From Sorex araneus (Eukaryota > Chordata > Mammalia > Eulipotyphla > Soricidae): a stretch of 64,000 nt of DNA. The first letter of the stretch is position 1; each line of letters begins with the position of its first letter. The notes beneath the pieces are model-generated. The model was given only the letters and a program-made list of their open reading frames with translations. It did not search any database and had not been told where the DNA came from. Of this stretch, positions 14,662-61,014 are shown one piece after another. The stretch lies in contig NC_073313.1 in the NCBI RefSeq assembly GCF_027595985.1, forward strand, positions 86,286,899-86,350,898, in the 5' to 3' direction. A program made the position numbers and the translations under genes.

Positions 14662-17600
14662 AAACCCAGGAGGAGCTTATCACTTGGGACCTGCAGCAAG
14701 GGTATTAACAAAATACCAAACACTTATCACCTGGTATCTGTCAGCAAAACACCAAGGAACATCAAGTAACAATACTTTTTGAAACCAAGTACAAAAATTT
14801 GGCATCTACCTCCAAGGTGAGCAAGCCAGCCCAGGAAAGGCAGAAACAGTAAAGAAGGGTCTCGCTCCCACACTGCCTTGTCTCTGCGTGGACCCCATTG
14901 TTTCAGGACTGAGCCTCACTCAGAAATGAACTTGCTGAAAATTCAAGTGTGCAAGTTTTAGTGACAGAAATCTTGACCTGGGATAGGCTACCCGCCCTTA
15001 CCTCCCAGTACTTTTGGGAGCTCTGGCAGTCGTGGAAATTCAATTCACGTAACACCTTGAACACTGCTAGCTTATTGTCTATGCCAGGATCCTCCTCTAA
15101 AGAAGACTTATCTACAAACCTGGGAATCGACATACACCCAGAAGATCTGACCTCTCTTGCAATCCTTTTGAAAATCCAGATCCCACTGTTTATGGGTGGC
15201 AGCTGCTTTCTGGAACAGGACGCCACTAAGTCCCCATACACTGCAGTGACCTCGAAAGACACTCAGTCTAATGCCAAATCCCAGGCTCGGCGTATGCGGA
15301 AGGATCCACCACTTGACGCTGCAGTGTGAAGGAGCAGTGGTATTTAAAGAGATCGTGAAGAAAGGCAGTGTCTCCCGTCCTACCGGCCAGACAGTAGGGA
15401 GGAAGACCCTCAAGGGCCTTGAGAAGCATATGCAAAGCTGCAAACCGTAAATGCTTATTTTCCATCACCGAGGGAAAGAGCTTCGCGCACTGGCAGGGAT
15501 GAAGTCCCGTGTCATGACAAAACCAAAACTGCCCATTTAGAGGGCTGAAGGGGACGCATTGAAAGAACCGAGGGAGAGGGAGAGGCTCCGCAGCGTTCTC
15601 AAGAGACTGGGGAAACTCAGGTGCACACGTGAGAGCTGCTCTAGTAGCGTTAGCAGCATCACGGCCTATCTGAACCATGTCCAAAAACGTGGAAAAGAGG
15701 CTGCCCAGCTGGAGAAGCTGACCCTGACGAGTCACCATTGTGGCAAGGTGTATTGGTCAAGGCTGGACTTGCATATCACCTGAGGTCAGAGCACGGGCCT
15801 ATCTTCTTTCTAGACACAGGGCAGCCAGAGGGCTTAACGGACATAAGCCTGCAGTAACCGAGTGGGGGCTTTCTGCCAAGAACGCTTTGAAGGCGTTCTG
15901 CCAACACAGCAGAGTTTCACCCACAAGGGCTGGCCTCTCTCTGCTGAGCAAACCCAGGAGGAGCTTATCACTTGGGACCTGCAGCAAGGGTATTAACAAA
16001 ATACCAAACACTTATCACCTGGTATCTGTCAGCAAAACGCCAAGTAACATCAAGTAAAAATACTTTTTGAAACCAAGTACAAAAATTTGGCATCTACCTC
16101 CAAGGTGAGCAAGCCAGCCCAGGAAAGGCCGAAACAGTGCAGAAGGGTCTCGCTCCCACTCTGCCTTGTCTCTGCGTGGACCCCATTGTTTCAGGACTGA
16201 GCCTCACTCAGAAATGAACTTGCTGAAAATTCAAGTGTGCAAGTTTTAGTGACAGAAATCTTGACCTGGGATAGGCTACCCGCCCTTACCTCCCAGTACT
16301 TTTGGGAGCTCTGGCAGTCGTGGAAATTCAATTCACGTAACACCTTGAACACTGCTAGCTTATTGTCTATGCCAGGATCCTCCTCTAAAGAAGACTTATC
16401 TACAAACCTGGGAATCGACATACACCCAGAAGATCTGACCTCTCTTGCAATCCTTTTGAAAATCCAGATCCCACTGTTTATGGGTGGCAGCTGCTTTCTG
16501 GAACAGGACGCCACTAAGTCCCCATACACTGCAGTGACCTCGAAAGACACTCAGTCTAATGCCAAATCCCAGGCTCGGCGTATGCGGAAGGATCCACCAC
16601 TTGACGCTGCAGTGTGAAGGAGCAGTGGTATTTAAAGAGATCGTGAAGAAAGGCAGTGTCTCCCGTCCTACCGGCCAGACAGTAGGGAGGAAGACCCTCA
16701 AGGGCCTTGAGAAGCATATGCAAAGCTGCAAACCGTAAATGCTTATTTTCCATCACCGAGGGAAAGAGCTTCGCGCACTGGCAGGGATGAAGTCCCGTGT
16801 CATGACAAAACCAAAACTGCCCATTTAGAGGGCTGAAGGGGACGCATTGAAAGAACCGAGGGAGAGGGAGAGGCTCCGCAGCGTTCTCAAGAGACTGGGG
16901 AAACTCAGGTGCACACGTGAGAGCTGCTCTAGTAGCGTTAGCAGCATCACGGCCTATCTGAACCATGTCCAAAAACGTGGAAAAGAGGCTGCCCAGCTGG
17001 AGAAGCTGACCCTGACGAGTCACCATTGTGGCAAGGTGTATTGGTCAAGGCTGGACTTGCATATCACCTGAGGTCAGAGCACGGGCCTATCTTCTTTCTA
17101 GACACAGGGCAGCCAGAGGGCTTAACGGACATAAGCCTGCAGTAACCGAGTGGGGGCTTTCTGCCAAGAACGCTTTGAAGGCGTTCTGCCAACACAGCAG
17201 AGTTTCACCCACAAGGGCTGGCCTCTCTCTGCTGAGCAAACCCAGGAGGAGCTTATCACTTGGGACCTGCAGCAAGGGTATTAACAAAATACCAAACACT
17301 TATCACCTGGTATCTGTCAGCAAAACGCCAAGTAACATCAAGTAAAAATACTTTTTGAAACCAAGTACAAAAATTTGGCATCTACCTCCAAGGTGAGCAA
17401 GCCAGCCCAGGAAAGGCCGAAACAGTGCAGAAGGGTCTCGCTCCCACTCTGCCTTGTCTCTGCGTGGACCCCATTGTTTCAGGACTGACCCTCACTCAGA
17501 AATGAACTTGCTGAAAATTCAAGTGTGCAAGTTTTAGTGACAGAAATCTTGACCTGGGATAGGCTACCCGCCCATACCTCCCAGTACTTTTGGGAGCTCT

Positions 17601-20600: not shown

Positions 20601-21566
20601 AAATGCTCATTTTCCATCACCGAGGGAAAGAGCTTCGCGCACTGGCAGGGAAGAAGTCCCGTGTCATGGCAAAACCAAAACTGCCCATTTAGAGGGGTGG
20701 AGGGGACGCATTCAACGAACCGAGGGAGAGGGAGAGGCTCCGCAGCGTTCTCAAGAGACTGGGGAAACTCAGGTGCACACGTGAGAGCTGCTCTACTAGC
20801 GTTAGCAGCATCACGGCCTATCTGAACCATGTCCAAAAACGTGGAAAACAGGCTGCCCAGCTGGAGAAGCTGACCCTGACGAGTCACCATTGTGGCAAGG
20901 TGTATTGGTCAAGGCTGGACTTGCATATCACCTGAGGTCAGAGCACGGGCCTATCTTCTTTCTAGACACAGGGCAGCCAGAGGGCTTAACGGACATAAGC
21001 CTGCAGTCACCGAGTGGGGGCTTTCTGCCAAGGACGCTTTGAAGGCGTTCTGCCAAGACAGCAGAGTTTCACCCACAAGGGCTGGCCTCTCTCTGCTGAG
21101 CAAACCCAGGAGGAGCTTATCACTTGGGACCTGCAGCAAGGGTATTAACAAAATACCAAACACTTATCACCTGGTATCTGTCAGCAAAACACCAAGGAAC
21201 ATCAAGTAACAATACTTTTTGAAACCAAGTACAAAAATTTGGCATCTACCTCCAAGGTGAGCAAGCCAGCCCAGGAAAGGCAGAAACAGTCCAGAAGGGT
21301 CTCGCTCCCACTCTGCCTTGTCTCTGGGTGGACCCCATTGTTTCAGGACTGAGCCTCACTCAGAAATGAACTTGCTGAAAATTCAAGTGTGCAAGTTTTA
21401 GTGACAGAAATCTTGACCTGGGATAGGCTACCCGCCCTTACCTCCCAGTACTTTTGGGAGCTCTGGCAGTCGTGGAAATTCAATTCACGTAACACCTTGA
21501 ACACTGCTAGCTTATTGTCTATGCCAGGATCCTCCTCTAAAGAAGACTTATCTACAAACCTGGGAA

Positions 21567-24500
21567 TCGACATACACCCAGAAGATCTGACCTCTCTTGC
21601 AATCCTTTTGAAAATCCAGATCCCACTGTTTATGGGTGGCAGCTGCTTTCAGGAACAGGACGCCACTAAGTCCCCATACACTGCAGTGACCTCGAAAGAC
21701 ACTCAGTCTAATGCCAAATCCCAGGCTCGGCGTATGCGGAAGGATCCACCACTTGACGCCGCAGTGTGAAGGAGCAGTGGTATTTAAAGAGATCGTGAAG
21801 AAAGGCAGTGTCTCCCGTCCTACCGGCCAGACGGTAGGGAGGAAGACCCTCAAGGGCCTTGAGAAGCATATGCAAAGCTGCAAACCGTAAATGCTCATTT
21901 TCCATCACCGAGGGAAAGAGCTTCGCGCACTGGCAGGGAAGAAGTCCCGTGTCATGGCAAAACCAAAACTGCCCATTTAGAGGGCTGGAGGGGACGCATT
22001 CAACGAACCGAGGGAGAGGGAGAGGCTCCGCAGCGTTCTCAAGAGACTGGGGAAACTCAGGTGCACACGTGAGAGCTGCTCTACTAGCGTTAGCAGCATC
22101 ACGGCCTATCTGAACCATGTCCAAAAACGTGGAAAAGAGGCTGCCCAGCTGGAGAAGCTGACCCTGACGAGTCACCATTGTGGCAAGGTGTATTGGTCAA
22201 GGCTGGACTTGCATATCACCTGAGGTCAGAGCACGGGCCTATCTTCTTTCTAGACACAGGGCAGCCAGAGGGCTTAACGGACATAAGCCTGCAGTCACCG
22301 AGTGGGGGCTTTCTGCCAAGGACGCTTTAAAGGCGTTCTGCCAAGACAGCAGAGTTTCACCCACAAGGGCTGGCCTCTCTCTGCTGAGCAAACCCAGGAG
22401 GAGCTTATCACTTGGGACCTGCAGCAAGGGTATTAACAAAATACCAAACACTTATCACCTGGTATCTGTCAGCAAAACACCAAGGAACATCAAGTAACAA
22501 TACTTTTTGAAACCAAGTACAAAAATTTGGCATCTACCTCCAAGGTGAGCAAGCCAGCCCAGGAAAGGCCGAAACAGTCCAGAAGGGTCTCGCTCCCACT
22601 CTGCCTTGTCTCTGGGTGGACCCCATTGTTTCAGGACTGAGCCTCACTCAGAAATGAACTTGATGAAAATTCAAGTGTGCAAGTTTTAGTGACAGAAATC
22701 TTGACCTGGGATAGGCTACCCGCCCTTACCTCCCAGTACTTTTGGGAGCTCTGGCAGTCGTGGAAATTCAATTCACGTAACACCTTGAACACTGCTAGCT
22801 TATTGTCTATGCCAGGATCCTCCTCTAAAGAAGACTTATCTACAAACCTGGGAATCGACATACACCCAGAAGATCTGACCTCTCTTGCAATCCTTTTGAA
22901 AATCCAGATCCCACTGTTTATGGGTGGCAGCTGCTTTCTGGAACAGGACGCCACTAAGTCCCCATACACTGCAGTGACCTCGAAAGACACTCAGTCTAAT
23001 GCCAAATCCCAGGCTCGGCGTATGCGGAAGGATCCACCACTTGACGCCGCAGTGTGAAGGAGCAGTGGTATTTAAAGAGATCGTGAAGAAAGGCAGTGTC
23101 TCCCGTCCTACCGGCCAGACGGTAGGGAGGAAGACCCTCAAGGGCCTTGAGAAGCATATGCAAAGCTGCAAACCGTAAATGCTTATTTTCCATCACCGAG
23201 GGAAAGAGCTTCGCGCACTGGCAGGGAAGAAGTCCCGTGTCATGACAAAACCAAAACTGCTCATTTAGAGGGCTGGAGGGGACGCATTCAAAGAACCGAG
23301 GGAGAGGGAGAGGCTCCGCAGCGTTCTCAAGAGACTGGGGAAACTCAGGTGCACACGTGAGAGCTGCTCTACTAGCGTTAGCAGCATCACGGCCTATCTG
23401 AACCATGTCCAAAAACGTGGAAAAGAGGCTGCCCAGCTGGAGAAGCTGACCCTGACGAGTCACCATTGTGGCAAGGTGTATTGGTCAAGGCTGGACTTGC
23501 ATATCACCTGAGGTCAGAGCACGGGCCTATCTTCTTTCTAGACACAGGGCAGCCAGAGGGCTTAACGGACATAAGCCTGCAGTCACCGAGTGGGGGCTTT
23601 CTGCCAAGGACGCTTTGAAGGCGTTCTGCCAAGACAGCAGAGTTTCACCCACAAGGGCTGGCCTCTCTCTGCTGAGCAAACCCAGGAGGAGCTTATCACT
23701 TGGGACCTGCAGCAAGGGTATTAACAAAATACCAAACACTTATCACCTGGTATCTGTCAGCAAAACACCAAGGAACATCAAGTAACAATACTTTTTGAAA
23801 CCAAGTACAAAAATTTGGCATCTACCTCCAAGGTGAGCAAGCCAGCCCAGGAAAGGCAGAAACAGTAAAGAAGGGTCTCGCTCCCACTCTGCCTTGTCTC
23901 TGCGTGGACCCCATTGTTTCAGGACTGAGCCTCACTCAGAAATGAACTTGCTGAAAATTCAAGTGTGCAAGTTTTAGTGACAGAAATCTTGACCTGGGAT
24001 AGGCTACCCGCACTTACCTCCCAGTACTTTTGGGAGCTCTGGCAGTCGTGGAAATTCAATTCACGTAACACCTTGAACACTGCTAGCTTATTGTCTATGC
24101 CAGGATCCTCCTCTAAAGAAGACTTATCTACAAACCTGGGAATCGACATACACCCAGAAGATCTGACCTCTCTTGCAATCCTTTTGAAAATCCAGATCCC
24201 ACTGTTTATGGGTGGCAGCTGCTTTCTGGAACAGGACGCCACTAAGTCCCCATACACTGCAGTGACCTCGAAAGACACTCAGTCTAATGCCAAATCCCAG
24301 GCTCGGCGTATGCGGAAGGATCCACCACTTGACGCTGCAGTGTGAAGGAGCAGTGGTATTTAAAGAGATCGTGAAGAAAGGCAGTGTCTCCCGTCCTACC
24401 GGCCAGACGGTAGGGAGCAAGACCCTCAAGGGCCTTGAGAAGCATATGCAAAGCTGCAAACCGTAAATGCTTATTTTCCATCACCGAGGGAAAGAGCTTC

Positions 24501-27500
24501 GCGCACTGGCAGGGATGAAGTCCCGTGTCATGACAAAACCAAAACTGCCCATTTAGAGGGCCTGGAGGGGACGCATTCGAAGAACCGAGGGAGAGGGAGA
24601 GGCTCCGCAGCGTTCTCAAGAGACTGGGGAAACTCAGGTGCACACGTGAGAGCTGCTCTAGTAGCGTTAGCAGCATCACGGCCTATCTGAACCATGTCCA
24701 AAAACGTGGAAAAGAGGCTGCCCAGCTGGAGAAGCTGACCCTGACGAGTCACCATTGCGGCAAGGTGTATTGGTCAAGGCTGGACTTGCATATCACCTGA
24801 GGTCAGAGCACGGGCCTATCTTCTTTCTAGACACAGGGCAGCCAGAGGGCTTAACGGACATAAGCCTGCAGTCACCGAGTGGGGGCTTTCTGCCAAGAAC
24901 GCTTTGAAGGCGTTCTGCCAACACAGCAGAGTTTCACCCACAAGGGCTGGCCTCTCTCTGCTGAGCAAACCCAGGAGGAGCTTATCACTTGGGACCTGCA
25001 GCAAGGGTATTAACAAAATACCAAACACTTATCACCTGGTATCTGTCAGCAAAACACCAAGGAACATCAAGTAACAATACTTTTTGAAACCAAGTACAAA
25101 AATTTGGCATCTACCTCCAAGGTGGCTAGCCAGCCCAGGAAAGGCCGAAACAGTCCAGAAGGGTCTCGCTCCCACTCTGCCTTGTCTCTGGGTGGACCCC
25201 ATTGTTTCAAGACTGAGCCTCACTCAGAAATGAACTTGCTGAAAATTCAAGTGTGCAAGTTTTAGTGACAGAAATCTTGACCTGGGATAGGCTAGCCGCC
25301 CATACCTCCCAGTACTTTTGGGAGCTCTGGCAGTCGTGGAAATTCAATTCACGTAACACCTTGAACACTGCTAGCTTATTGTCTATGCCAGGATCCTCCT
25401 CTAAAGAAGACTTATCTACAAACCTGGGAATAGACATACACCCAGAAGATCTGACCTCTCTTGCAATCCTTTTGAAAATCCAGATCCCACTGTTTATGGG
25501 TGGCAGCTGCTTTCAGGAACAGGACGCCACTAAGTCCCCATACACTGCAGTGACCTCGAAAGACACTCAGTCTAATGCCAAATCCCAGGCTCGGCGTATG
25601 CGGAAGGATCCACCACTTGACGCCGCAGTGTGAAGGAGCAGTGGTATTTAAAGAGATCGTGAAGAAAGGCAGTGTCTCCCGTCCTACCGGCCAGACGGTA
25701 GGGAGGAAGACCCTCAAGGGCCTTGAGAAGCATATGCAAAGCTGCAAACCGTAAATGCTCATTTTCCATCACCGAGGGAAAGAGCTTCGCGCACTGGCAG
25801 GGAAGAAGTCCCGTGTCATGGCAAAACCAAAACTGCCCATTTAGAGGGCTGGAGGGGACGCATTCAACGAACCGAGGGAGAGGGAGAGGCTCCGCAGCGT
25901 TCTCAAGAGACTGGGGAAACTCAGGTGCACACGTGAGAGCTGCTCTACTAGCGTTAGCAGCATCACGGCCTATCTGAACCATGTCCAAAAACGTGGAAAA
26001 GAGGCTGCCCAGCTGGAGAAGCTGACCCTGACGAGTCACCATTGCGGCAAGGTGTATTGGTCAAGGCTGGACTTGCATATCACCTGAGGTCAGAGCACGG
26101 GCCTATCTTCTTTCTAGACACAGGGCAGCCAGAGGGCTTAACGGACATAAGCCTGCAGTCACCGAGTGGGGGCTTTCTGCCAAGAACGCTTTGAAGGCGT
26201 TCTGCCAACACAGCAGAGTTTCACCCACAAGGGCTGGCCTCTCTCTGCTGAGCAAACCCAGGAGGAGCTTATCACTTGGGACCTGCAGCAAGGGTATTAA
26301 CAAAATACCAAACACTTATCACCTGGTATCTGTCAGCAAAACACCAAGGAACATCAAGTAACAATACTTTTTGAAACCAAGTACAAAAATTTGGCATCTA
26401 CCTCCAAGGTGAGCAAGCCAGCCCAGGAAAGGCCGAAACAGTCCAGAAGGGTCTCGCTCCCACTCTGCCTTGTCTCTGGGTGGACCCCATTGTTTCAGGA
26501 CTTAGCCTCACTCAGAAATGAACTTGATGAAAATTCAAGTGTGCAAGTTTTAGTGACAGAAATCTTGACCTGGGATAGGCTACCCGCCCTTACCTCCCAG
26601 TACTTTTGGGAGCTCTGGCAGTCGTGGAAATTCAATTCACGTAACACCTTGAACACTGCTAGCTTATTGTCTATGCCAGGATCCTCCTCTAAAGAAGACT
26701 TATCTACAAACCTGGGAATCGACATACACCCAGAAGATCTGACCTCTCTTGCAATCCTTTTGAAAATCCAGATCCCACTGTTTATGGGTGGCAGCTGCTT
26801 TCTGGAACAGGACGCCACTAAGTCCCCATACACTGCAGTGACCTCGAAAGACACTCAGTCTAATGCCAAATCCCAGGCTCGGCGTATGCGGAAGGATCCA
26901 CCACTTGACGCCGCAGTGTGAAGGAGCAGTGGTATTTAAAGAGATCGTGAAGAAAGGCAGTGTCTCCCGTCCTACCGGCCACACGGTAGGGAGGAAGACC
27001 CTCAAGGGCCTTGAGAAGCATATGCAAAGCTGCAAACCGTAAATGCTTATTTTCCATCACCGAGGGAAAGAGCTTCGCGCACTGGCAGGGAAGAAGTCCC
27101 GTGTCATGACAAAACCAAAACTGCTCATTTAGAGGGCTGGAGGGGACGCATTCAAAGAACCGAGGGAGAGGGAGAGGCTCCGCAGCGTTCTCAAGAGACT
27201 GGGGAAACTCAGGTGCACACGTGAGAGCTGCTCTACTATCGTTAGCAGCATCACGGCCTATCTGAACCATGTCCAAAAACGTGGAAAAGAGGCTGCCCAG
27301 CTGGAGAAGCTGACCCTGACGAGTCACCATTGTGGCAAGGTGTATTGGTCAAGGCTGGACTTGCATATCACCTGAGGTCAGAGCACGGGCCTATCTTCTT
27401 TCTAGACACAGGGCAGCCAGAGGGCTTAACGGACATAAGCCTGCAGTCACCGAGTGGGGGCTTTCTGCCAAGGACGCTTTGAAGGCGTTCTGCCAAGACA

Positions 27501-30500
27501 GCAGAGTTTCACCCACAAGGGCTGGCCTCTCTCTGCTGAGCAAACCCAGGAGGAGCTTATCACTTGGGACCTGCAGCAAGGGTATTAACAAAATACCAAA
27601 CACTTATCACCTGGTATCTGTCAGCAAAACACCAAGGAACATCAAGTAACAATACTTTTTGAAACCAAGTACAAAAATTTGGCATCTACCTCCAAGGTGA
27701 GCAAGCCAGCCCAGGAAAGGCAGAAACAGTAAAGAAGGGTCTCGCTCCCACTCTGCCTTGTCTCTGCGTGGACCCCATTGTTTCAGGACTGAGCCTCACT
27801 CAGAAATGAACTTGCTGAAAATTCAAGTGTGCAAGTTTTAGTGACAGAAATCTTGACCTGGGATAGGCTACCCGCACTTACCTCCCAGTACTTTTGGGAG
27901 CTCTGGCAGTCGTGGAAATTCAATTCACGTAACACCTTGAACACTGCTAGCTTATTGTCTATGCCAGGATCCTCCTCTAAAGAAGACTTATCTACAAACC
28001 TGGGAATCGACATACACCCAGAAGATCTGACCTCTCTTGCAATCCTTTTGAAAATCCAGATCCCACTGTTTATGGGTGGCAGCTGCTTTCTGGAACAGGA
28101 CGCCACTAAGTCCCCATACACTGCAGTGACCTCGAAAGACACTCAGTCTAATGCCAAATCCCAGGCTCGGCGTATGCGGAAGGATCCACCACTTGACGCT
28201 GCAGTGTGAAGGAGCACTGGTATTTAAAGAGATCGTGAAGAAAGGCAGTGTCTCCCGTCCTACCGGCCAGACGGTAGGGAGGAAGACCCTCAAGGGCCTT
28301 GAGAAGCATATGCAAAGCTGCAAACCGTAAATGCTTATTTTCCATCACCGAGGGAAAGAGCTTGGCGCACTGGCAGGGATGAAGTCCCGTGTCATGACAA
28401 AACCAAAACTGCCCATTTAGAGGGCCTGGAGGGGACGCATTCGAAGAACCGAGGGAGAGGGAGAGGCTCCGCAGCGTTCTCAAGAGACTGGGGAAACTCA
28501 GGTGCACACGTGAGAGCTGCTCTAGTAGCGTTAGCAGCATCACGGCCTATCTGAACCATGTCCAAAAACGTGGAAAAGAGGCTGCCCAGCTGGAGAAGCT
28601 GACCCTGACGAGTCACCATTGCGGCAAGGTGTATTGGTCAAGGCTGGACTTGCATATCACCTGAGGTCAGAGCACGGGCCTATCTTCTTTCTAGACACAG
28701 GGCAGCCAGAGGGCTTAACGGACATAAGCCTGCAGTCACCGAGTGGGGGCTTTCTGCCAAGAACGCTTTGAAGGCGTTCTGCCAACACAGCAGAGTTTCA
28801 CCCACAAGGGCTGGCCTCTCTCTGCTGAGCAAACCCAGGAGGAGCTTATCACTTGGGACCTGCAGCAAGGGTATTAACAAAATACCAAACACTTATCACC
28901 TGGTATCTGTCAGCAAAACACCAAGGAACATCAAGTAACAATACTTTTTGAAACCAAGTACAAAAATTTGGCATCTACCTCCAAGGTGGCTAGCCAGCCC
29001 AGGAAAGGCCGAAACAGTCCAGAAGGGTCTCGCTCCCACTCTGCCTTGTCTCTGGGTGGACCCCATTGTTTCAAGACTGAGCCTCACTCAGAAATGAACT
29101 TGCTGAAAATTCAAGTGTGCAAGTTTTAGTGACAGAAATCTTGACCTGGGATAGGCTACCCGCCCATACCTCCCAGTACTTTTGGGAGCTCTGGCAGTCG
29201 TGGAAATTCAATTCACGTAACACCTTGAACACTGCTAGCTTATTGTCTATGCCAGGATCCTCCTCTAAAGAAGACTTATCTACAAACCTGGGAATAGACA
29301 TACACCCAGAAGATCTGACCTCTCTTGCAATCCTTTTGAAAATCCAGATCCCACTGTTTATGGGTGGCAGCTGCTTTCAGGAACAGGACGCCACTAAGTC
29401 CCCATACACTGCAGTGACCTCGAAAGACACTCAGTCTAATGCCAAATCCCAGGCTCGGCGTATGCGGAAGGATCCACCACTTGACGCCGCAGTGTGAAGG
29501 AGCAGTGGTATTTAAAGAGATCGTGAAGAAAGGCAGTGTCTCTCGTCCTACCGGCCAGACGGTAGGGAGGAAGACCCTCAAGGGCCTTGAGAAGCATATG
29601 CAAAGCTGCAAACCGTAAATGCTCATTTTCCATCACCGAGGGAAACAGCTTCGCGCACTGGCAGGGAAGAAGTCCCGTGTCATGGCAAAACCAAAACTGC
29701 CCATTTAGAGGGCTGGAGGGGACGCATTCAACGAACCGAGGGAGAGGGAGAGGCTCCGCAGCGTTCTCAAGAGACTGGAAAAACTCAGGTGCACACGTGA
29801 GAGCTGCTCTACTAGCGTTAGCAGCATCACGGCCTATCTGAACCATGTCCAAAAACGTGGAAAAGAGGCTGCCCAGCTGGAGAAGCTGACCCTGACGAGT
29901 CACCATTGTGGCAAGGTGTATTGGTCAAGGCTGGACTTGCATATCACCTGAGGTCAGAGCACGGGCCTATCTTCTTTCTAGACACAGGGCAGCCAGAGGG
30001 CTTAACGGACATAAGCCTGCAGTCACCGAGTGGGGGCTTTCTGCCAAGGACGCTTTGAAGGCGTTCTGCCAACACAGCAGAGTTTCACCCACAAGGGCTG
30101 GCCTCTCTCTGCTGAGCAAACCCAGGAGGAGCTTATCACTTGGGACCTGCAGCAAGGGTATTAACAAAATACCAAACACTTATCACCTGGTATCTGTCAG
30201 CAAAACACCAAGGAACATCAAGTAACAATACTTTTTGAAACCAAGTACAAAAATTTGGCATCTACCTCCAAGGTGAGCAAGCCAGCCCAGGAAAGGCAGA
30301 AACAGTCCAGAAGGGTCTCGCTCCCACTCTGCCTTGTCTCTGGGTGGACCCCATTGTTTCAGGACTGAGCCTCACTCAGAAATGAACTTGCTGAAAATTC
30401 AAGTGTGCAAGTTTTAGTGACAGAAATCTTGACCTGGGATAGGCTACCCGCACTTACCTCCCAGTACTTTTGGGAGCTCTGGCAGTCGTGGAAATTCAAT

Positions 30501-43000: not shown

Positions 43001-46000
43001 AACCCAGGAGGAGCTTATCACTTGGGACCTGCAGCAAGGGTATTAACAAAATACCAAACACTTATCACCTGGTATCTGTCAGCAAAACACCAAGGAACAT
43101 CAAGTAACAATACTTTTTGAAACCAAGTACAAAAATTTGGCATCTACCTCCAAGGTGAGCAAGCCAGCCCAGGAAAGGCAGAAACAGTAAAGAAGGGTCT
43201 CGCTCCCACTCTGCCTTGTCTCTGCGTGGACCCCATTGTTTCAGGACTGAGCCTCACTCAGAAATGAACTTGCTGAAAATTCAAGTGTGCAAGTTTTAGT
43301 GACAGAAATCTTGACCTGGGATAGGCTACCCGCACTTACCTCCCAGTACTTTTGGGAGCTCTGGCAGTCGTGGAAATTCAATTCACGTAACACCTTGAAC
43401 ACTGCTAGCTTATTGTCTATGCCAGGATCCTCCTCTAAAGAAGACTTATCTACAAACCTGGGAATCGACATACACCCAGAAGATCTGACCTCTCTTGCAA
43501 TCCTTTTGAAAATCCAGATCCCACTGTTTATGGGTGGCAGCTGCTTTCTGGAACAGGACGCCACTAAGTCCCCATACACTGCAGTGACCTCGAAAGACAC
43601 TCAGTCTAATGCCAAATCCCAGGCTCGGCGTATGCGGAAGGATCCACCACTTGACGCTGCAGTGTGAAGGAGCACTGGTATTTAAAGAGATCGTGAAGAA
43701 AGGCAGTGTCTCCCGTCCTACCGGCCAGACGGTAGGGAGGAAGACCCTCAAGGGCCTTGAGAAGCATATGCAAAGCTGCAAACCGTAAATGCTTATTTTC
43801 CATCACCGAGGGAAAGAGCTTCGCGCACTGGCAGGGATGAAGTCCCGTGTCATGACAAAACCAAAACTGCCCATTTAGAGGGCCTGGAGGGGACGCATTC
43901 GAAGAACCGAGGGAGAGGGAGAGGCTCCGCAGCGTTCTCAAGAGACTGGGGAAACTCAGGTGCACACGTGAGAGCTGCTCTAGTAGCGTTAGCAGCATCA
44001 CGGCCTATCTGAACCATGTCCAAAAACGTGGAAAAGAGGCTGCCCAGCTGGAGAAGCTGACCCTGACGAGTCACCATTGCGGCAAGGTGTATTGGTCAAG
44101 GCTGGACTTGCATATCACCTGAGGTCAGAGCACGGGCCTATCTTCTTTCTAGACACAGGGCAGCCAGAGGGCTTAACGGACATAAGCCTGCAGTCACCGA
44201 GTGGGGGCTTTCTGCCAAGAACGCTTTGAAGGCGTTCTGCCAACACAGCAGAGTTTCACCCACAAGGGCTGGCCTCTCTCTGCTGAGCAAACCCAGGAGG
44301 AGCTTATCACTTGGGACCTGCAGCAAGGGTATTAACAAAATACCAAACACTTATCACCTGGTATCTGTCAGCAAAACACCAAGGAACATCAAGTAACAAT
44401 ACTTTTTGAAACCAAGTACAAAAATTTGGCATCTACCTCCAAGGTGGCTAGCCAGCCCAGGAAAGGCCGAAACAGTCCAGAAGGGTCTCGCTCCCACTCT
44501 GCCTTGTCTCTGGGTGGACCCCATTGTTTCAAGACTGAGCCTCACTCAGAAATGAACTTGCTGAAAATTCAAGTGTGCAAGTTTTAGTGACAGAAATCTT
44601 GACCTGGGATAGGCTACCCGCCCATACCTCCCAGTACTTTTGGGAGCTCTGGCAGTCGTGGAAATTCAATTCACGTAACACCTTGAACACTGCTAGCTTA
44701 TTGTCTATGCCAGGATCCTCCTCTAAAGAAGACTTATCTACAAACCTGGGAATAGACATACACCCAGAAGATCTGACCTCTCTTGCAATCCTTTTGAAAA
44801 TCCAGATCCCACTGTTTATGGGTGGCAGCTGCTTTCAGGAACAGGACGCCACTAAGTCCCCATACACTGCAGTGACCTCGAAAGACACTCAGTCTAATGC
44901 CAAATCCCAGGCTCGGCGTATGCGGAAGGATCCACCACTTGACGCCGCAGTGTGAAGGAGCAGTGGTATTTAAAGAGATCGTGAAGAAAGGCAGTGTCTC
45001 TCGTCCTACCGGCCAGACGGTAGGGAGGAAGACCCTCAAGGGCCTTGAGAAGCATATGCAAAGCTGCAAACCGTAAATGCTCATTTTCCATCACCGAGGG
45101 AAACAGCTTCGCGCACTGGCAGGGAAGAAGTCCCGTGTCATGGCAAAACCAAAACTGCCCATTTAGAGGGCTGGAGGGGACGCATTCAACGAACCGAGGG
45201 AGAGGGAGAGGCTCCGCAGCGTTCTCAAGAGACTGGAAAAACTCAGGTGCACACGTGAGAGCTGCTCTACTAGCGTTAGCAGCATCACGGCCTATCTGAA
45301 CCATGTCCAAAAACGTGGAAAAGAGGCTGCCCAGCTGGAGAAGCTGACCCTGACGAGTCACCATTGTGGCAAGGTGTATTGGTCAAGGCTGGACTTGCAT
45401 ATCACCTGAGGTCAGAGCACGGGCCTATCTTCTTTCTAGACACAGGGCAGCCAGAGGGCTTAACGGACATAAGCCTGCAGTCACCGAGTGGGGGCTTTCT
45501 GCCAAGGACGCTTTGAAGGCGTTCTGCCAACACAGCAGAGTTTCACCCACAAGGGCTGGCCTCTCTCTGCTGAGCAAACCCAGGAGGAGCTTATCACTTG
45601 GGACCTGCAGCAAGGGTATTAACAAAATACCAAACACTTATCACCTGGTATCTGTCAGCAAAACACCAAGGAACATCAAGTAACAATACTTTTTGAAACC
45701 AAGTACAAAAATTTGGCATCTACCTCCAAGGTGAGCAAGCCAGCCCAGGAAAGGCAGAAACAGTCCAGAAGGGTCTCGCTCCCACTCTGCCTTGTCTCTG
45801 GGTGGACCCCATTGTTTCAGGACTGAGCCTCACTCAGAAATGAACTTGCTGAAAATTCAAGTGTGCAAGTTTTAGTGACAGAAATCTTGACCTGGGATAG
45901 GCTACCCGCACTTACCTCCCAGTACTTTTGGGAGCTCTGGCAGTCGTGGAAATTCAATTCACGTAACACCTTGAACACTGCTAGCTTATTGTCTATGCCA

Positions 46001-49000
46001 GGATCCTCCTCTAAAGAAGACTTATCTACAAACCTGGGAATAGACATACACCCAGAAGATCTGACCTCTCTTGCAATCCTTTTGAAAATCCAGATCCCAC
46101 TGTTTATGGGTGGCAGCTGCTTTCTGGAACAGGACGCCACTAAGTCCCCATACACTGCAGTGACCTCGAAAGACACTCAGTCTAATGCCAAATCCCAGGC
46201 TCGGCGTATGCGGAAGGATCCACCACTTGACGCCGCAGTGTGAAGGAGCAGTGGTATTTAAAGAGATCGTGAAGAAAGGCAGTGTCTCCCGTCCTACCGG
46301 CCAGACGGTAGGGAGGAAGACCCTCAAGGGCCTTGAGAAGCATATGCAAAGCTGCAAACCGTAAATGCTTATTTTCCATCACCGAGGGAAAGAGCTTCGC
46401 GCACTGGCAGGGATGAAGTCCCGTGTCATGACAAAACCAAAACTGCCCATTTAGAGGGCCTGGAGGGGACGCATTCGAAGAACCGAGGGAGAGGGAGAGG
46501 CTCCGCAGCGTTCTCAAGAGACTGGGGAAACACAGGTGCACACGTGAGAGCTGCTCTAGTAGCGTTAGCAGCATCACAGCCTATCTGAACCATGTCCAAA
46601 AACGTGGAAAAGAGGCTGCCCAGCTGGAGAAGCTGACCCTGACGAGTCACCATTGCGGCAAGGTGTATTGGTCAAGGCTGGACTTGCATATCACCTGAGG
46701 TCAGAGCACGGGCCTATCTTCTTTCTAGACACAGGGCAGCCAGAGGGCTTAACGGACATAAGCCTGCAGTCACCGAGTGGGGGCTTTCTGCCAAGAACGC
46801 TTTGAAGGCGTTCTGCCAACACAGCAGAGTTTCACCCACAAGGGCTGGCCTCTCTCTGCTGAGCAAACCCAGGAGGAGCTTATCACTTGGGACCTGCAGC
46901 AAGGGTATTAACAAAATACCAAACACTTATCACCTGGTATCTGTCAGCAAAACACCAAGGAACATCAAGTAACAATACTTTTTGAAACCAAGTACAAAAA
47001 TTTGGCATCTACCTCCAAGGTGGCTAGCCAGCCCAGGAAAGGCCGAAACAGTCCAGAAGGGTCTCGCTCCCACTCTGCCTTGTCTCTGGGTGGACCCCAT
47101 TGTTTCAAGACTGAGCCTCACTCAGAAATGAACTTGCTGAAAATTCAAGTGTGCAAGTTTTAGTGACAGAAATCTTGACCTGGGATAGGCTACCCGCCCT
47201 TACCTCCCAGTACTTTTGGGAGCTCTGGCAGTCGTGGAAATTCAATTCACGTAACACCTTGAACACTGCTAGCTTATTGTCTATGCCAGGATCCTCCTCT
47301 AAAGAAGACTTATCTACAAACCTGGGAATAGACATACACCCAGAAGATCTGACCTCTCTTGCAATCCTTTTGAAAATCCAGATCCCACTGTTTATGGGTG
47401 GCAGCTGCATTCTGGAACAGGGCGCCACTAAGTCCCCATACACTGCAGTGACCTCGAAAGACACTCAGTCTAATGCCAAATCCCAGGCTCGGCGTATGCG
47501 GAAGGATCCACCACTTGACGCCGCAGAGTGAAGGAGCAGTGGTATTTAAAGAGATCGTGAAGAAAGGCAGTGTCTCCCGTCCTACCGGCCAGACGGTAGG
47601 GAGGAAGACCCTCAAGGGCCTTGAGAAGCATATGCAAAGCTGCAAACCGTAAATGCTCATTTTCCATCACCGAGGGAAAGAGCTTCGCGCACTGGCAGGG
47701 ATGAAGTCCCGTGTCATGACAAAACCAAAACTGCCCATTTAGAGGGCCTGGAGGGGACGCATTCGAAGAACCAAGGGAGAGGGAGAGGCTCCGCTGCGTT
47801 CTCAAGAGACTGGGGAAACTCAGGTGCACACGTGAGAGCTGCTCTACTAGCGTTAGCAGCATCACGGCCTATCTGAACCATGTCCAAAAACGTGGAAAAG
47901 AGGCTGCCCAGCTGGAGAAGCTGACCCTGACGAGTCACCATTGCGGCAAGGTGTATTGGTCAAGGCTGGACTTGCATATCACCTGAGGTCAGAGCACGGG
48001 CCTATCTTCTTTCTAGACACAGGGCAGCCAGAGGGCTTAACGGACATAAGCCTGCAGTCACCGAGTGGGGGCTTTCTGCCAAGGACGCTTTGAAGGCGTT
48101 CTGCCAACACAGCAGAGTTTCACCCACAAGGGCTGGCCTCTCTCTGCTGAGCAAACCCAGGAGGAGCTTATCACTTGGGACCTGCAGCAAGGGTATTAAC
48201 AAAATACCAAACACTTATCACCTGGTATCTGTCAGCAAAACACCAAGGAACATCAAGTAACAATACTTTTTGAAACCAAGTACAAAAATTTGGCATCTAC
48301 CTCCAAGGTGAGCAAGCCAGCCCAGGAAAGGCCGAAACAGTCCAGAAGGGTCTCGCTCCCACTCTGCCTTGTCTCTGGGTGGACCCCATTGTTTCAGGAC
48401 TGAGCCTCACTCAGAAATGAACTTGCTGAAAATTCAAGTGTGCAAGTTTTAGTGACAGAAATCTTGACCTGGGATAGGCTACCCGCCCTTACCTCCCAGT
48501 ACTTTTGGGAGCTCTGGCAGTCGTGGAAATTCAATTCACGTAACACCTTGAACACTGCTAGCTTATTGTCTATGCCAGGATCCTCCTCTAAAGAAGACTT
48601 ATCTACAAACCTGGGAATAGACATACACCCAGAAGATCTGACCTCTCTTGCAATCCTTTTGAAAATCCAGATCCCACTGTTTATGGGTGGCAGCTGCTTT
48701 CTGGAACAGGACGCCACTAAGTCCCCATACACTGCAGTGACCTCGAAAGACACTCAGTCTAATGCCAAATCCCAGGCTCGGCGTATGCGGAAGGATCCAC
48801 CACTTGACGCCGCAGTGTGAAGGAGCTGTGGTATTTATAGAGATCGTGAAGAAAGGCAGTGTCTCCAGTCCTACCGGCCAGACGGTAGGGAGGAAGACCC
48901 TCAAGGGCCTTGAGAAGCATATGCAAAGCTGCAAAGCGTAAATGCTTATTTTCCATCACCGAGGGAAAGAGCTTCGCGCACTGGCAGGGATGAAGTCCCG

Positions 49001-52000
49001 TGTCATGACAAAACCAAAACTGCCCATTTAGAGGGCCTGGAGGGGACGCATTCGAAGAACCGAGGGAGAGGGAGAGGCTCCGCAGCGTTCTCAAGAGACT
49101 GGGGAAACTCAGGTGCACACGTGAGAGCTGCTCTAGTAGCGTTAGCAGCATCACGGCCTATCTGAACCATGTCCAAAAACGTGGAAAAGAGGCTGCCCAG
49201 CTGGAGAAGCTGACCCTGACGAGTCACCATTGCGGCAAGGTGTATTGGTCAAGGCTGGACTTGCATATCACCTGAGGTCAGAGCACGGGCCTATCTTCTT
49301 TCTAGACACAGGGCAGCCAGAGGGCTTAACGGACATAAGCCTGCAGTCACCGAGTGGGGGCTTTCTGCCAAGAACGCTTTGAAGGCGTTCTGCCAACACA
49401 GCAGAGTTTCACCCACAAGGGCTGGCCTCTCTCTGCTGAGCAAACCCAGGAGGAGCTTATCACTTGGGACCTGCAGCAAGGGTATTAACAAAATACCAAA
49501 CACTTATCACCTGGTATCTGTCAGCAAAACACCAAGGAACATCAAGTAACAATACTTTTTGAAACCAAGTACAAAAATTTGGCATCTACCTCCAAGGTGG
49601 CTAGCCAGCCCAGGAAAGGCCGAAACAGTCCAGAAGGGTCTCGCTCCCACTCTGCCTTGTCTCTGGGTGGACCCCATTGTTTCAAGACTGAGCCTCACTC
49701 AGAAATGAACTTGCTGAAAATTCAAGTGTGCAAGTTTTAGTGACAGAAATCTTGACCTGGGATAGGCTACCCGCCCATACCTCCCAGTACTTTTGGGAGC
49801 TCTGGCAGTCGTGGAAATTCAATTCACGTAACACCTTGAACACTGCTAGCTTATTGTCTATGCCAGGATCCTCCTCTAAAGAAGACTTATCTACAAACCT
49901 GGGAATAGACATACACCCAGAAGATCTGACCTCTCTTGCAATCCTTTTGAAAATCCAGATCCCACTGTTTATGGGTGGCAGCTGCTTTCAGGAACAGGAC
50001 GCCACTAAGTCCCCATACACTGCAGTGACCTCGAAAGACACTCAGTCTAATGCCAAATCCCAGGCTCGGCGTATGCGGAAGGATCCACCACTTGACGCCG
50101 CAGTGTGAAGGAGCAGTGGTATTTAAAGAGATCGTGAAAAAAGGCAGTGTCTCCCGTCCTACCGGCCAGACGATAGGGAGGAAGACCCTCAAGGGCCTTG
50201 AGAAGCATATGCAAAGCTGCAAACCGTAAATGCTCATTTTCCATCACCGAGGGAAAGAGCTTCGCGCACTGGCAGGGATGAAGTCCCGTGTCATGACAAA
50301 ACCAAAACTGCCCATTTAGAGGGCCTGGAGGGGACGCATTCGAAGAACCGAAGGAGAGGGAGAGGCTCCGCTGCGTTCTCAAGAGACTGGGGAAACTCAG
50401 GTGCACACGTGAGAGCTGCTCTACTAGCGTTAGCAGCATCACGGCCTATCTGAACCATGTCCAAAAACGTGAAAAAGAGGCTGCCCAGCTGGAGAAGCTG
50501 ACCCTGACGAGTCACCATTGCGGCAAGGTGTATTGGTCAAGGCTGGACTTGCATATCACCTGAGGTCAGAGCACGGGCCTATCTTCTTTCTAGACACAGG
50601 GCAGCCAGAGGGCTTAACGGACATAAGCCTGCAGTCACCGAGTGGGGGCTTTCTGCCAAGGACGCTTTGAAGGCGTTCTGCCAACACAGCAGAGTTTCAC
50701 CCACAAGGGCTGGCCTCTCTCTGCTGAGCAAACCCAGGAGGAGCTTATCACTTGGGACCTGCAGCAAGGGTATTAACAAAATACCAAACACTTATCACCT
50801 GGTATCTGTCAGCAAAACACCAAGGAACATCAAGTAACAATACTTTTTGAAACCAAGTACAAAAATTTGGCATCTACCTCCAAGGTGAGCAAGCCAGCCC
50901 AGGAAAGGCCGAAACAGTCCAGAAGGGTCTCGCTCCCACTCTGCCTTGTCTCTGGGTGGACCCCATTGTTTCAGGACTGAGCCTCACTCAGAAATGAACT
51001 TGCTGAAAATTCAAGTGTGCAAGTTTTAGTGACAGAAATCTTGACCTGGGATAGGCTACCCGCCCTTACCTCCCAGTACTTTTGGGAGCTCTGGCAGTCG
51101 TGGAAATTCAATTCACGTAACACCTTGAACACTGCTAGCTTATTGTCTATGCCAGGATCCTCCTCTAAAGAAGACTTATCTACAAACCTGAGAATAGACA
51201 TACATCCAGATTTTCTGACCTCTCTTGCAATCCTTTTGAAAATCCAGATCCCACTGTTTATGGGTGGCAGCTGCTTTCTGGAACAGGGCGCCACTAAGTC
51301 CCCATACACTGCAGTGACCTCGAAAGACACTCAGTCTAATGCCAAATCCCAGGCTCGGCGTATGCGGAAGGATCCACCACTTGACGCCGCAGAGTGAAGG
51401 AGCAGTGGTATTTAAAGAGATCGTGAAGAAAGGCAGTGTCTCCCGTCCTACCGGCCAGACGGTAGGGAGGAAGACCCTCAAGGGCCTTGAGAAGCATATG
51501 CAAAGCTGCAAAGCGTAAATGCTTATTTTCCATCACCGAGGGAAAGAGCTTCGCGCACTGGCAGGGAAGAAGTCCCGTGTCATGACAAAACCAAAACTGC
51601 CCATTTAGAGGGCTGGAGGGGACGCATTCAACGAACCGAGGGAGAGGGAGAGGCTCCGCTGCGTTCTCAAGAGACTGGGGAAACTCAGGTGCACACGTGA
51701 GAGCTGCTCTACTAGCGTTAGCAGCATCACGGCCTATCTGAACCATGTCCAAAAACGTGGAAAAGAGGCTGCCCAGCTGGAGAAGCTGACCCTGACGAGT
51801 CACCATTGCGGCAAGGTGTATTGGTCAAGGCTGGACTTGCATATCACCTGAGGTCAGAGCACGGACCTATCTTCTTTCTAGACACAGGGCAGCCAGAGGG
51901 CTTAACGGACATAAGCCTGCAGTCACCGAGTGGGGGCTTTCTGCCAAGAACGCTTTGAAGGCGTTCTGCCAACACAGCAGAGTTTCACCCACAAGGGCTG

Positions 52001-52482
52001 GCCTCTCTCTGCTGAGCAAACCCAGGAGGAGCTTATCACTTGGGACCTGCAGCAAGGGTATTAACAAAATACCAAATACTTATCACCTGGTATCTGTCAG
52101 CAAAACACCAAGGAACATCAAGTAACAATACTTTTTGAAACCAAGTACAAAAATTTGGCATCTACCTCCAAGGTGAGCAAGCCAGCCCAGGAAAGGCCGA
52201 AACAGTCCAGAAGGGTCTCGCTCCCACTCTGCCTTGTCTCTGGGTGGACCCCATTGTTTCAGGACTGAGCCTCACTCAGAAATGAACTTGCTGAAAATTC
52301 AAGTGTGCAAGTTTTAGTGACAGAAATCTTGACCTGGGATAGGCTACCCGCCCTTACCTCCCAGTACTTTTGGGAGCTCTGGCAGTCGTGGAAATTCAAT
52401 TCACGTAACACCTTGAACACTGCTAGCTTATTGTCTATGCCAGGATCCTCCTCTAAAGAAGACTTATCTACAAACCTGGGAA
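37025..52482 (+). repeat. 12-unit higher-order block, copy B (15,458 bp)
   Basis: Tandem duplicate of the preceding block. Similarity continues to about 52,550, where ATGAGTGGC replaces ATGGGTGGC. I found five single-base differences from copy A: 23,568/39,026, 27,497/42,955, 28,364/43,822, 31,698/47,156 and 32,650/48,108. These differences show the block is not an exact assembly echo, and the low number implies a very recent duplication. Confidence 0.9.
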
Positions 52483-53306
52483 TAGACATACACCCAGAAG
52501 ATCTGACCTCTCTTGCAATCCTTTTGAAAATCCAGATCCCACTGTTTATGAGTGGCAGCTGCTTTCTGGAACAGGGCGCCACTAAGTCCCCATACACTGC
52601 AGTGACCTCGAAAGACACTCAGTCTAATGCCAAATCCCAGGCTCGGCGTATGCGGAAGGATCCACCACTTGACGCCGCAGTGTGAAGGAGCAGTGGTATT
52701 TAAAGAGATCGTGAAGAAAGGCAGTGTCTCCCGTCCTACCGGCCAGACGGTAGGGAGGAAGACCCTCAAGGGCCTTGAGAAGCATATGCAAAGCTGCAAA
52801 CCGTAAATGCTCATTTTCCATCACCGAGGGAAAGAGCTTCGCGCACTGGCAGGGATGAAGTCCCGTGTCATGACAAAACCAAAACTGCCCATTTAGAGGG
52901 CCTGGAGGGGACGCATTCGAAGAACCAAGGGAGAGGGAGAGGCTCCGCTGCGTTCTCAAGAGACTGGGGAAACTCAGGTGCACACGTGAGAGCTGCTCTA
53001 CTAGCGTTAGCAGCATCACGGCCTATCTGAACCATGTCCAAAAACGTGGAAAAGAGGCTGCCCAGCTGGAGAAGCTGACCCTGACGAGTCACCATTGCGG
53101 CAAGGTGTATTGGTCAAGGCTGGACTTGCATATCACCTGAGGTCAGAGCACGGGCCTATCTTCTTTCTAGACACAGGGCAGCCAGAGGGCTTAACGGACA
53201 TAAGCCTGCAGTCACCGAGTGGGGGCTTTCTGCCAAGGACGCTTTGAAGGCGTTCTGCCAAGACAGCAGAGTTTCACCCACAAGGGCTGGCCTCTCTCTG
53301 CTGAGC
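48153..53306 (+). repeat. 4-unit block, copy 1 (5,154 bp)
   Basis: Units 27-30. The order of diagnostic unit types matches units 31-34 at an offset of 5,154 bp: a unit with the 2-change pair near 48,827 or its relative, a GGTGGCTAG unit, the CCAGATTTTCTGACC unit, then a unit ending AATACTTATC. Divergence between the two blocks is greater than between the 15.46-kb blocks. For example GCTGTGGTATTTATAG at 48,826 is GCAGTGGTATTTAAAG in the later copy. Confidence 0.8.
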
Positions 53307-59749: not shown

Positions 59750-61014
59750 AAACCCAGGAGGAGCTTATCACTTGGGACCTGCAGCAAGGGTATTAACAAA
59801 ATACCAAACACTTATCACCTGGTATCTGTCAGCAAAACACCAAGGAACATCAAGTAACAATACTTTTTGAAACCAAGTACAAAAATTTGGCATCTACCTC
59901 CAAGGTGAGCAAGCCAGCCCAGGAAAGGCCGAAACAGTCCAGAAGGGTCTCGCTCCCACTCTGCCTTGTCTCTGGGTGGACCCCATTGTTTCAGGACTGA
60001 GCCTCACTCAGAAATGAACTTGCTGAAAATTCAAGTGTGCAAGTTTTAGTGACAGAAATCTTGACCTGGGATAGGCTACCCGCCCTTACCTCCCAGTACT
60101 TTTGGGAGCTCTGGCAGTCGTGGAAATTCAATTCACGTAACACCTTGAACACTGCTAGCTTATTGTCTATGCCAGGATCCTCCTCTAAAGAAGACTTATC
60201 TACAAACCTGGGAATCGACATACACCCAGAAGATCTGACCTCTCTTGCAATCCTTTTGAAAATCCAGATCCCACTGTTTATGGGTGGCAGCTGCTTTCTG
60301 GAACAGGGCGCCACTAAGTCCCCATACACTGCAGTGACCTCGAAAGACACTCAGTCTAATGCCAAATCCCAGGCTCGGCGTATGCGGAAGGATCCACCAC
60401 TTGACGCCGCAGAGTGAAGGAGCAGTGGTATTTAAAGAGATCGTGAAGAAAGGCAGTGTCTCCCGTCCTACCGGCCAGACGGTAGGGAGGAAGACCCTCA
60501 AGGGCCTTGAGAAGCATATGCAAAGCTGCAAACCGTAAATGCTTATTTTCCATCACCGAGGGAAAGAGCTTCGCGCACTGGCAGGGAAGAAGTCCCGTGT
60601 CATGACAAAACCAAAACTGCCTATTTAGAGGGCTGGAGGGGACGCATCCAAAGAACCGAGGGAGAGGGAGAGGCTCCGCAGCGTTCTCAAGAGACTGGGG
60701 AAACTCAGGTGCACACGTGAGAGCTGCTCTAGTAGCGTTAGCAGCATCACGGCCTATCTGAACCATGTCCAAAAATGTGGAAAAGAGGCTGCCCAGCTGG
60801 AGAAGCTGACCCTGACGGGTCACCATTGTGGCAAGGTGTATTGGTCAAGGCTGGACTTGCATATCACCTGAGGTCAGAGCACGGGCCTGTCTTCTTTCTA
60901 GACACAGGGCAGCCAGAGGGCTTAACGGACAGAAGCCTGCAGTTTCCGAGTGGGGGCCAGGTTTTAAGGCATTCTGTCAAGTTAGCTCAGTTTCGTCCAC
61001 AAGAGCTGGCCTCT
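59750..61014 (+). repeat. Terminal unit 36, divergent at its right edge
   Basis: The unit follows the array consensus until about 60,950. There CGAGTGGGGGCCAGGTTTTA replaces the array version CGAGTGGGGGCTTTCTGCCA. The last ~65 bp are closer to the ZNF512 reading than the array units are. The expected junction to AAACCC does not occur, and the ZNF512 retrocopy simply continues. This is the right-hand ancestral edge. Confidence 0.85.

What the first reader, a model, noticed from the sequence alone, without database searches (positions are those of the whole stretch)
14662..61014. A macrosatellite built from a ZNF512 retrocopy
Thirty-six head-to-tail units of 1,288-1,289 bp, each about half ZNF512 pseudogene, fill 46 kb. 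I know of no described satellite of this origin. The layout resembles retrogene-bearing macrosatellites such as human D4Z4, although here the embedded copy is broken. From memory, and not certain, ZNF512 has been reported to bind pericentromeric repeats and help start heterochromatin. If so, a satellite-binding gene has itself become a satellite.
Basis: partly seen in the sequence, partly recalled or inferred. Interest (0 to 1): 0.92.

Follow-up and report, generated by a model that had tools for sequence, protein, structure and literature searches.

The report
X-linked satellite from ZNF512 pseudogene piece
A dead copy of the gene ZNF512 landed among older repeats on what is very likely a shrew X chromosome, and a fused piece of dead gene plus repeat was then copied 36 times in a row; an unmultiplied sister arrangement still lies nearby, so much of the birth of a new satellite can be read.

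Summary
Thirty-six head-to-tail units (consensus 1,288 bp) fill about 46.3 kb without a gap. The unit's internal junction is found 36 times in the 2.4-Gb assembly, only here. Slightly over half of each unit is a spliced, frameshifted piece of ZNF512; the parent gene lies on the same contig, which also carries XIST, so it is the X.

The satellite is not simply "a retrocopy". Its unit fuses the middle of a retrocopy to older local satellite sequence. Both flanks carry further parts of a ZNF512 retrocopy. The array lies in one of four RBMX2-bearing segmental duplicates (one with RBMX2 broken). Duplicate III keeps the unamplified satellite-retrocopy arrangement; duplicate I instead has a 374-bp satellite array at the corresponding place.

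Best explanation: a non-coding macrosatellite born in place by deletion-fusion and tandem amplification, kept alike by unequal exchange, with a recent 12-unit block duplication. No sense ORF beyond chance was found. Published work supports the link of ZNF512 with pericentromeric silencing only at second hand, and nothing here shows that ZNF512 acts on this array. New member of a known kind, with an unusually complete birth record.

The parts
12739..13505 (+). Left-edge satellite half of the first, undeleted copy (S'): end of a 1.24-kb repeat, then 374-bp-satellite sequence
   Evidence: S query 1-121 at 12739-12868 (85.4%) and 125-577 at 13055-13505 (92.7%); 374-bp array units align from 12899 (75-80%)
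13600..13972 (+). A: 5' part of the ZNF512 retrocopy (5' leader and early exons, spliced), present in this first copy and absent from the repeat unit; start approximate
   Evidence: parent exons 9035-9200, 10971-11065, 11853- contiguous from 13704; 5' leader aligned with the C1 retrocopy
13973..14661 (+). B0: ZNF512 block not directly preceded by the satellite half (no S-B junction)
   Evidence: not among the 36 junctions
14662..60957 (+). Array of 36 [S-B] units (consensus 1288 bp): S about 599 bp of local satellite, B about 689 bp from six spliced ZNF512 exons, frameshifted
21034..37117 (+). First copy of the block repeated 12 units (15,458 bp) further on; units 7-17 correspond to units 19-29
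   Evidence: 11 mismatches in 16,084 bp at shift 15,458; 5 differences over 11 unit pairs
36492..52575 (+). Second copy of the 12-unit block (overlaps the first by the repeat's periodicity)
60349..61025 (+). B36, last ZNF512 block: hybrid, first part array-like, remainder closer to the unamplified copy III; end approximate
   Evidence: alignment columns 0-240 are 99.6% to the array consensus against 91.0% to III; columns 240-653 are 95.9% against 98.2%; last 90 columns 76.5% against 98.1%
61025..61240 (+). C: 3' continuation of the retrocopy (parent stretches 22463-22578 and 24121-24178), then broken off; start approximate
   Evidence: 60891-61240 is 98.6% to copy III over 350 bases

Best explanation
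It is a non-coding, single-locus macrosatellite on the X chromosome, most likely born in place. SHOWN: (1) a spliced ZNF512 retrocopy lies between 1.24-kb repeats and the RBMX2-bearing part of a segmental duplicate; it occurs in three of four duplicates; (2) in copy III the order satellite - retrocopy 5' part - middle - 3' part is single; (3) in copy IV (the window) the left edge keeps satellite-5'-middle and the right edge keeps middle-3', while the 36 units between are satellite joined straight to the middle, so the unit lacks the retrocopy's 5' part (about 467 bp) and about 186 bp of satellite that the left edge and copy III have; (4) units differ by 1.3% on average and one 12-unit block is nearly identical to the next. 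INFERRED: a tandem duplication ran from within the 1.24-kb repeat to within a ZNF512 exon; a deletion fused satellite to retrocopy middle; unequal exchange or break-repair copying raised the number to 36 and keeps units alike. It most likely has no product and no selected task; its effect, if any, would be that of repeat-induced silent chromatin at an X-linked amplicon.
For: Single locus, 36 junctions. Five introns removed within the unit, nine joins across flanks and unit. Collinear duplicates, 87-93% alike in eight measured non-repeat pairs, with RBMX2 in all four, one broken. Four frame-breaking indels in the consensus, two of them (-4 and -1) shared with copy III, so the copy was already broken before amplification. 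No sense ORF of 90 codons or more. Array consensus B is 93.0% to copy III, 86.5% to the parent and 85.2% to the separate C1 retrocopy. All 60 listed matches of a 1.24-kb unit lie at this locus, though only 40 of 1946 candidates were scored. Block duplication.
Against: The end of the last ZNF512 block and the right flank are closer to copy III (2.5% divergence right of C) than the array's own B is (7%). So either III and IV exchanged sequence after the array formed, or the founder unit came from another, lost copy; 'in place' is thus not fully proved. The 374-bp search did not list its own array, so absence elsewhere is weak for that repeat. No population, expression, methylation or long-read data.
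Confidence: 0.8

Rival explanations
1. The array is functional in the way of D4Z4: each unit carries a retrogene whose product or transcript is made when silencing fails.
For: Tandem retrocopy-bearing units with a relatively CpG-rich gene half (B o/e 0.56 against 0.22 in S). Antisense ORFs of 101-156 codons are found 58 times in the array, 19 of them 156 codons long, just above the 95% point (149) of mononucleotide shuffles.
Against: Four frame-breaking indels and three stops at parent codon positions in the consensus, part of them shared with the unamplified copy; the retrocopy's 5' leader and start lie outside the unit; no sense ORF of 90 codons or more in the array; the longest shuffle gave 209 codons, and near-identical units repeat any chance ORF.
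Confidence: 0.03
2. The length is partly an assembly product: real array, but the count of 36 or the 12-unit block duplication reflects mis-joined reads.
For: Units 7-17 and 19-29 differ at 5 sites in 11 units, and 16.1 kb repeat at shift 15,458 with 11 mismatches. Such a block is about the length of many long reads (recalled).
Against: No N; both flanks are joined to the array through retrocopy sequence; 81 variable columns among 35 units give landmarks. Even without the block there would be about 24 units.
Confidence: 0.08
3. The satellite half is the driver: a local satellite family expanded and the ZNF512 fragment is a passenger.
For: Duplicate I carries a roughly 17-kb array of 374-bp period at the corresponding place with no ZNF512 match; the 1.24-kb repeats occur in all four duplicates; part of S (about unit 327-429) also matches scattered sites on C1, C2, C4, C5, C10 and elsewhere on C12 at 77-87%.
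Against: One end of the duplicated unit lies inside the retrocopy and both halves are amplified equally; nothing here tests which half promoted expansion.
Confidence: 0.25
4. ZNF512 protein binds and silences the array, so that the array is a target or sink of its own parent protein.
For: ZNF512/512B recruit SUV39H to pericentromeric repeats (passages). TTC+GAA triplets (target recalled, from no call) are 35.9 per kb in the array, 15% above the 31.2 expected from composition.
Against: The flanks have more such triplets, 38.0 per kb left (35.7 expected) and 47.0 right, so the array is not rich in them. A gene's body has no reason to be its protein's binding site.
Confidence: 0.04

Closest known systems
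D4Z4 macrosatellite with the DUX4 retrogene (human 4q35)
   Same: Kilobase units in tandem at a restricted locus, each holding sequence of a retrotransposed gene (search listing and abstract starts)
   Different: D4Z4 units hold a retrogene that can be expressed; here the fragment is frameshifted, lacks its 5' part and has no sense ORF of 90 codons or more. Unit 1.29 kb against about 3.3 kb (recalled).
X-linked macrosatellites such as DXZ4 and CT47 (recalled)
   Same: X-linked, tandem, kilobase units, single locus
   Different: Origin from a ZNF512 retrocopy plus local satellite; CTCF binding and X-inactivation behaviour not tested here
Satellites born from tandem repeats inside transposons (PMC7004042; title and abstract start seen)
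   Same: A pre-existing sequence becomes the monomer by tandem amplification
   Different: The source here is a processed pseudogene fused to an older satellite, with an unamplified sister arrangement kept nearby
Separate ZNF512 retrocopy on C1 (L030)
   Same: Spliced copy of the same parent gene
   Different: The C1 copy is single, longer and closer to the parent (94.5% over B); not amplified

Membership tests
Macrosatellite | Tandem head-to-tail units of more than about 1 kb | tested here: met
   36 units of 1,288 bp consensus
Macrosatellite | One or few chromosomal sites | tested here: met
   36 of 36 junction matches in the 2.4-Gb assembly lie here
Macrosatellite | Copy number varies between individuals | not testable with these tools
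   One assembly only; the 12-unit block duplication suggests recent change
D4Z4-type retrogene macrosatellite | Unit contains spliced retrocopy sequence | tested here: met
   Six exons joined in the unit
D4Z4-type retrogene macrosatellite | Unit keeps an open reading frame of the retrogene | tested here: not met
   Indels of -4, +2, -1 and -1 and three stops at parent codon positions in the consensus; no sense ORF of 90 codons or more in the array
Processed pseudogene | Introns precisely removed relative to the parent | tested here: met
   Nine joins across left flank, B and right flank; five of the parent's introns read for GT/AG ends
Processed pseudogene | Poly(A) tail and target-site duplication | tested here: inconclusive
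   The 3' end is broken off within a parent exon and followed by a SINE-like sequence; the 5' neighbourhood is A/T-rich (GATTAAAAA)
Pericentromeric satellite bound by ZNF512 | Arrays at the pericentromeres of several chromosomes | tested here: not met
   One site of 46 kb, near RBMX2; the centromere's place was not determined
Pericentromeric satellite bound by ZNF512 | Bound by ZNF512 | not testable with these tools
   No binding data
X-linked locus | Same chromosome as XIST | tested here: met
   Rfam Xist_exon1: one listed match, over the cut-off, at C12:138628177-138628254 (55 of 286,394 first-look candidates scored)

The most novel reading that the evidence does not exclude
The array feeds back on its parent. 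Transcripts of an X-linked, 36-fold ZNF512 fragment, in which 57 21-mers and 25 30-mers are identical to parent exons (669 and 660 positions in the fragment), supply germline small RNAs against ZNF512, a heterochromatin initiator, as an X-linked selfish or dosage-tuning array comparable in logic to Stellate-type systems (recalled). Array and parent lying on the same fused X would make the pair linked.
Probability: 0.03. Interest if true: 0.88.

Novelty: new member of a known kind. Interest (0 to 1): 0.52.

Why it matters
How satellites are born is usually hard to read because the progenitor is gone. Here one X-linked neighbourhood holds four duplicates: one with a 374-bp satellite array, one with a broken retrocopy, one with the single-copy precursor-like arrangement and one with the 36-unit array whose two edges still show retrocopy sequence. 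That makes the proposed steps (retroposition, fusion by deletion, amplification, homogenisation, edge exchange) testable in related shrews and populations. The ZNF512 identity is a striking coincidence rather than a demonstrated loop.

Tried and rejected
Retrogene with a product: rejected (frameshifts, no sense ORF). Amplification of the separate C1 retrocopy: rejected; array B is 85.2% to C1 and 93.0% to copy III. Dispersed satellite family: rejected for the composite unit. Enrichment of TTC/GAA as a recalled ZNF512 target: 15% above composition but below both flanks. Gene conversion from elsewhere in the region as the source of clustered unit variants: in seven clusters chosen by eye, outside the array the consensus letters scored higher than the variant letters in six of seven; the variant scored higher for unit 15 at 785-840. 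GC-biased conversion: of 83 variant alleles 71 could be polarised by copy III, 32 GC to AT, 9 AT to GC, 30 neither. Mutation signature: unit variants are transversion-rich (34 transitions, 48 transversions among 35 units) and clustered (18 same-set pairs within 25 bp against 2.3 expected, 24 of 35 units used because units 19-29 were dropped as block copies; ten of the 18 pairs come from one unit set). Outside CpG the counts are 25:45 (the Fisher test was typed as 25:44) against 453:363 in five of the twelve neighbouring pairs measured, P 0.002; with CpG included P is 0.019. The pairs share branches, two pairs made of repeats are also transversion-rich, and one other yardstick (C1 retrocopy against parent, 53:11) is far higher, so I leave this as an observation. 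Two errors of my own were mended: one search's figure of 49 differences for the last unit counted 37 overhanging columns (12 within the unit), and the parent splice was off by one to two bases at several joins, which had put false indels into. Literature: searches (5 of 5 listed; 15 of 61; 15 of 27; 15 of 48; 15 of 118; 25 of 52; 4 of 4; 2 of 2) gave no listed title on a ZNF512-derived or Sorex macrosatellite; only open-licence PMC text was searched, and most papers were seen as listing and abstract start only.

Full report
CHECK. The window lies at C12:86286899-86350898 of an unnamed 2.406-Gb, 65-contig genome. The repeat is real: autocorrelation at 1288 and multiples, 36 anchor words, 36 exact S-B junctions in the whole assembly and none elsewhere at up to 2 mismatches, alternating BamHI spacing, no N. 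The first whole-genome search scored 39 of 168 candidates and listed only part of the units, so the pattern count is the one to use.

ANATOMY. With unit position 1 at window 14545, ZNF512 occupies about unit 717-1288 plus 1-117 (homology to the parent can be followed to 135) and the rest is S. The ZNF512 part joins six parent exons of C12:361549872-361556218 without introns; the peptide of the parent exons matches PDB 2ctd, Zinc finger protein 512. Left of the array, a retrocopy's 5' leader and early exons stand directly before the first ZNF512 block (about 13600-13972); right of it the retrocopy runs on through two more spliced stretches to about 61237 and stops inside an exon. S is made of the end of a 1.24-kb repeat and part of a 374-bp satellite, both of which occur in tandem upstream. 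Compared with the left edge, the unit lacks the 5' retrocopy part (13506-13972, 467 bp) and 12869-13054 (186 bp of satellite), which copy III also has.

SURROUNDINGS. The 266 kb studied (86090001-86356000) hold four collinear duplicates. Of twelve pairs measured, eight lie outside the repeats and are 87-93% alike, one just right of C is 97.5%, and three involve S, A-B or the 1.24-kb repeat (86-92%). All four duplicates carry the RBMX2 last exon, copy II in broken pieces (identity of RBMX2 by PDB 5z56_Y). Copy I has a roughly 17-kb array of 374-bp period and no ZNF512 match at E 1e-6; copy II has the retrocopy's 5' part and part of the middle; copy III has satellite-5'-middle-3' once (86264598-86266595); copy IV is the window. 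Rfam's Xist_exon1 has its one listed match on the same contig at 138.6 Mb, so C12 is the X. A GPR119-like frame between copies II and III (PDB match) fits, since RBMX2 and GPR119 are X-linked neighbours in human (recalled). The common shrew X is a fusion of the true X with an autosome (PMC5672328, passages), which would explain the parent gene at 361.5 Mb of the same contig; that assignment is inference.

AGE AND HOMOGENISATION. The 35 full units differ pairwise by 17.2 sites on average (range 0-28) and, in the 1288 kept columns, each of the 36 units differs from the consensus at 5-17 (the 49 that one search gave for the last unit included its overhang). The last ZNF512 block starts array-like (99.6%) and ends copy III-like (98.1% against 76.5% to the array over the last 90 columns). 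Units 7-17 recur as 19-29 with 5 differences in total; at shift 15,458 a 16,084-bp stretch has 11 mismatches. Of 83 variant alleles in 81 variable columns, 16 are private to one unit and 67 are shared, as expected when units are copied into each other. Array B is 93.0% identical to copy III, 86.5% to the parent and 85.2% to the C1 retrocopy.

CODING AND CHROMATIN HINTS. Against a parent splice checked by its GT/AG ends and open frame, the array consensus has frame-breaking indels of -4, +2, -1 and -1, in-frame changes of -3 and +12, and three stops at parent codon positions; the -4, the -3 and one -1 are shared with copy III. No sense ORF of 90 codons or more exists in the array; antisense ORFs of 156 codons occur 19 times, just above the 95% point (149) of shuffles whose maximum was 209. 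CpG observed/expected is 0.56 in B (29 CpG) and 0.22 in S, against 0.48 in the aligned parent stretch (22) and 0.44 in copy III's B (20); of 22 parental CpGs 15 are kept, 4 are TG/CA, 3 otherwise changed, and 13 are new. CpG bases carry 9 of 34 transitions while making up 72 of 1288 positions, so some germline methylation is likely (inference).

LITERATURE. Passages in PMC12920882 and PMC11646706 state that ZNF512/ZNF512B recruit SUV39H methyltransferases to pericentromeric heterochromatin, and that they silence L1s and pericentromeric repeats; both cite Ma et al. 2024, seen only in reference lists. The D4Z4/DUX4 comparison rests on titles and abstract starts. Searches for processed pseudogene with macrosatellite (4 papers) and for two of Sorex, macrosatellite, ZNF512 and RBMX2 (2 papers) listed no paper on such an array; the one holding both Sorex and ZNF512 is about GCKR loss by its title.

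VERDICT. A true, single-locus, X-linked macrosatellite of composite origin, non-coding as far as sequence shows, with a precursor-like arrangement preserved in a neighbouring duplicate. As a kind of object it is known; as a record of satellite birth it is unusually complete. A functional loop with ZNF512 is unsupported.

Noticed in passing
L010-L012 (about C12:86104383-86121753): A roughly 17-kb, 374-bp-period satellite array in duplicate I, about 80% alike to part of S; its own whole-genome search listed 39 matches, all at this locus, but not the array itself, so the tool can miss arrays.
   Followed up: partly
L009-L010, L016-L017, L024-L026 and window 11401-12823: A 1.24-kb tandem repeat in all four duplicates, mostly 72-90% alike; all 60 listed matches of one unit lie at this locus, with 40 of 1946 candidates scored.
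   Followed up: partly
C12:86124255, 86175024, 86272794, 86351650 (minus); C10:9759537; C2:334810180; C4:161476046: RBMX2 last exon in four copies at the locus, open in I, III and IV and broken in II, plus three copies on other contigs. An RBMX2 amplicon on the X may itself be of interest.
   Followed up: partly
Array units, window 14662-60957: Unit variants are transversion-rich and clustered, with adjacent double or triple changes shared by unit sets; the 1.24-kb repeat pair is also transversion-rich. Could reflect error-prone repair copying; baseline not settled.
   Followed up: partly
Array ZNF512 half: CpG content is not depleted relative to the parent exons although the satellite half is depleted.
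   Followed up: partly
L025:2898-8832 (C12:86252898-86258832): Provirus-like frames between 1.24-kb repeat copies in duplicate III; recognised by eye in a mechanical frame list, no family search made.
   Followed up: no
L030 (C1:93761501-93768500, minus): A separate, long ZNF512 retrocopy matching all twelve parent exon stretches that I examined, 88-99% each.
   Followed up: partly
L021, near C12:86217949 (place inferred from an overlapping frame; the row was cut): GPR119-like open frame between duplicates II and III (PDB match); its whole-genome search did not complete.
   Followed up: no
window 6229-6553: AGGA microsatellite, 81 copies.
   Followed up: no
window 60349-61240 against L026: The end of the last repeat and the right flank match duplicate III better than the array does, pointing to exchange between duplicates III and IV at the array edge.
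   Followed up: partly
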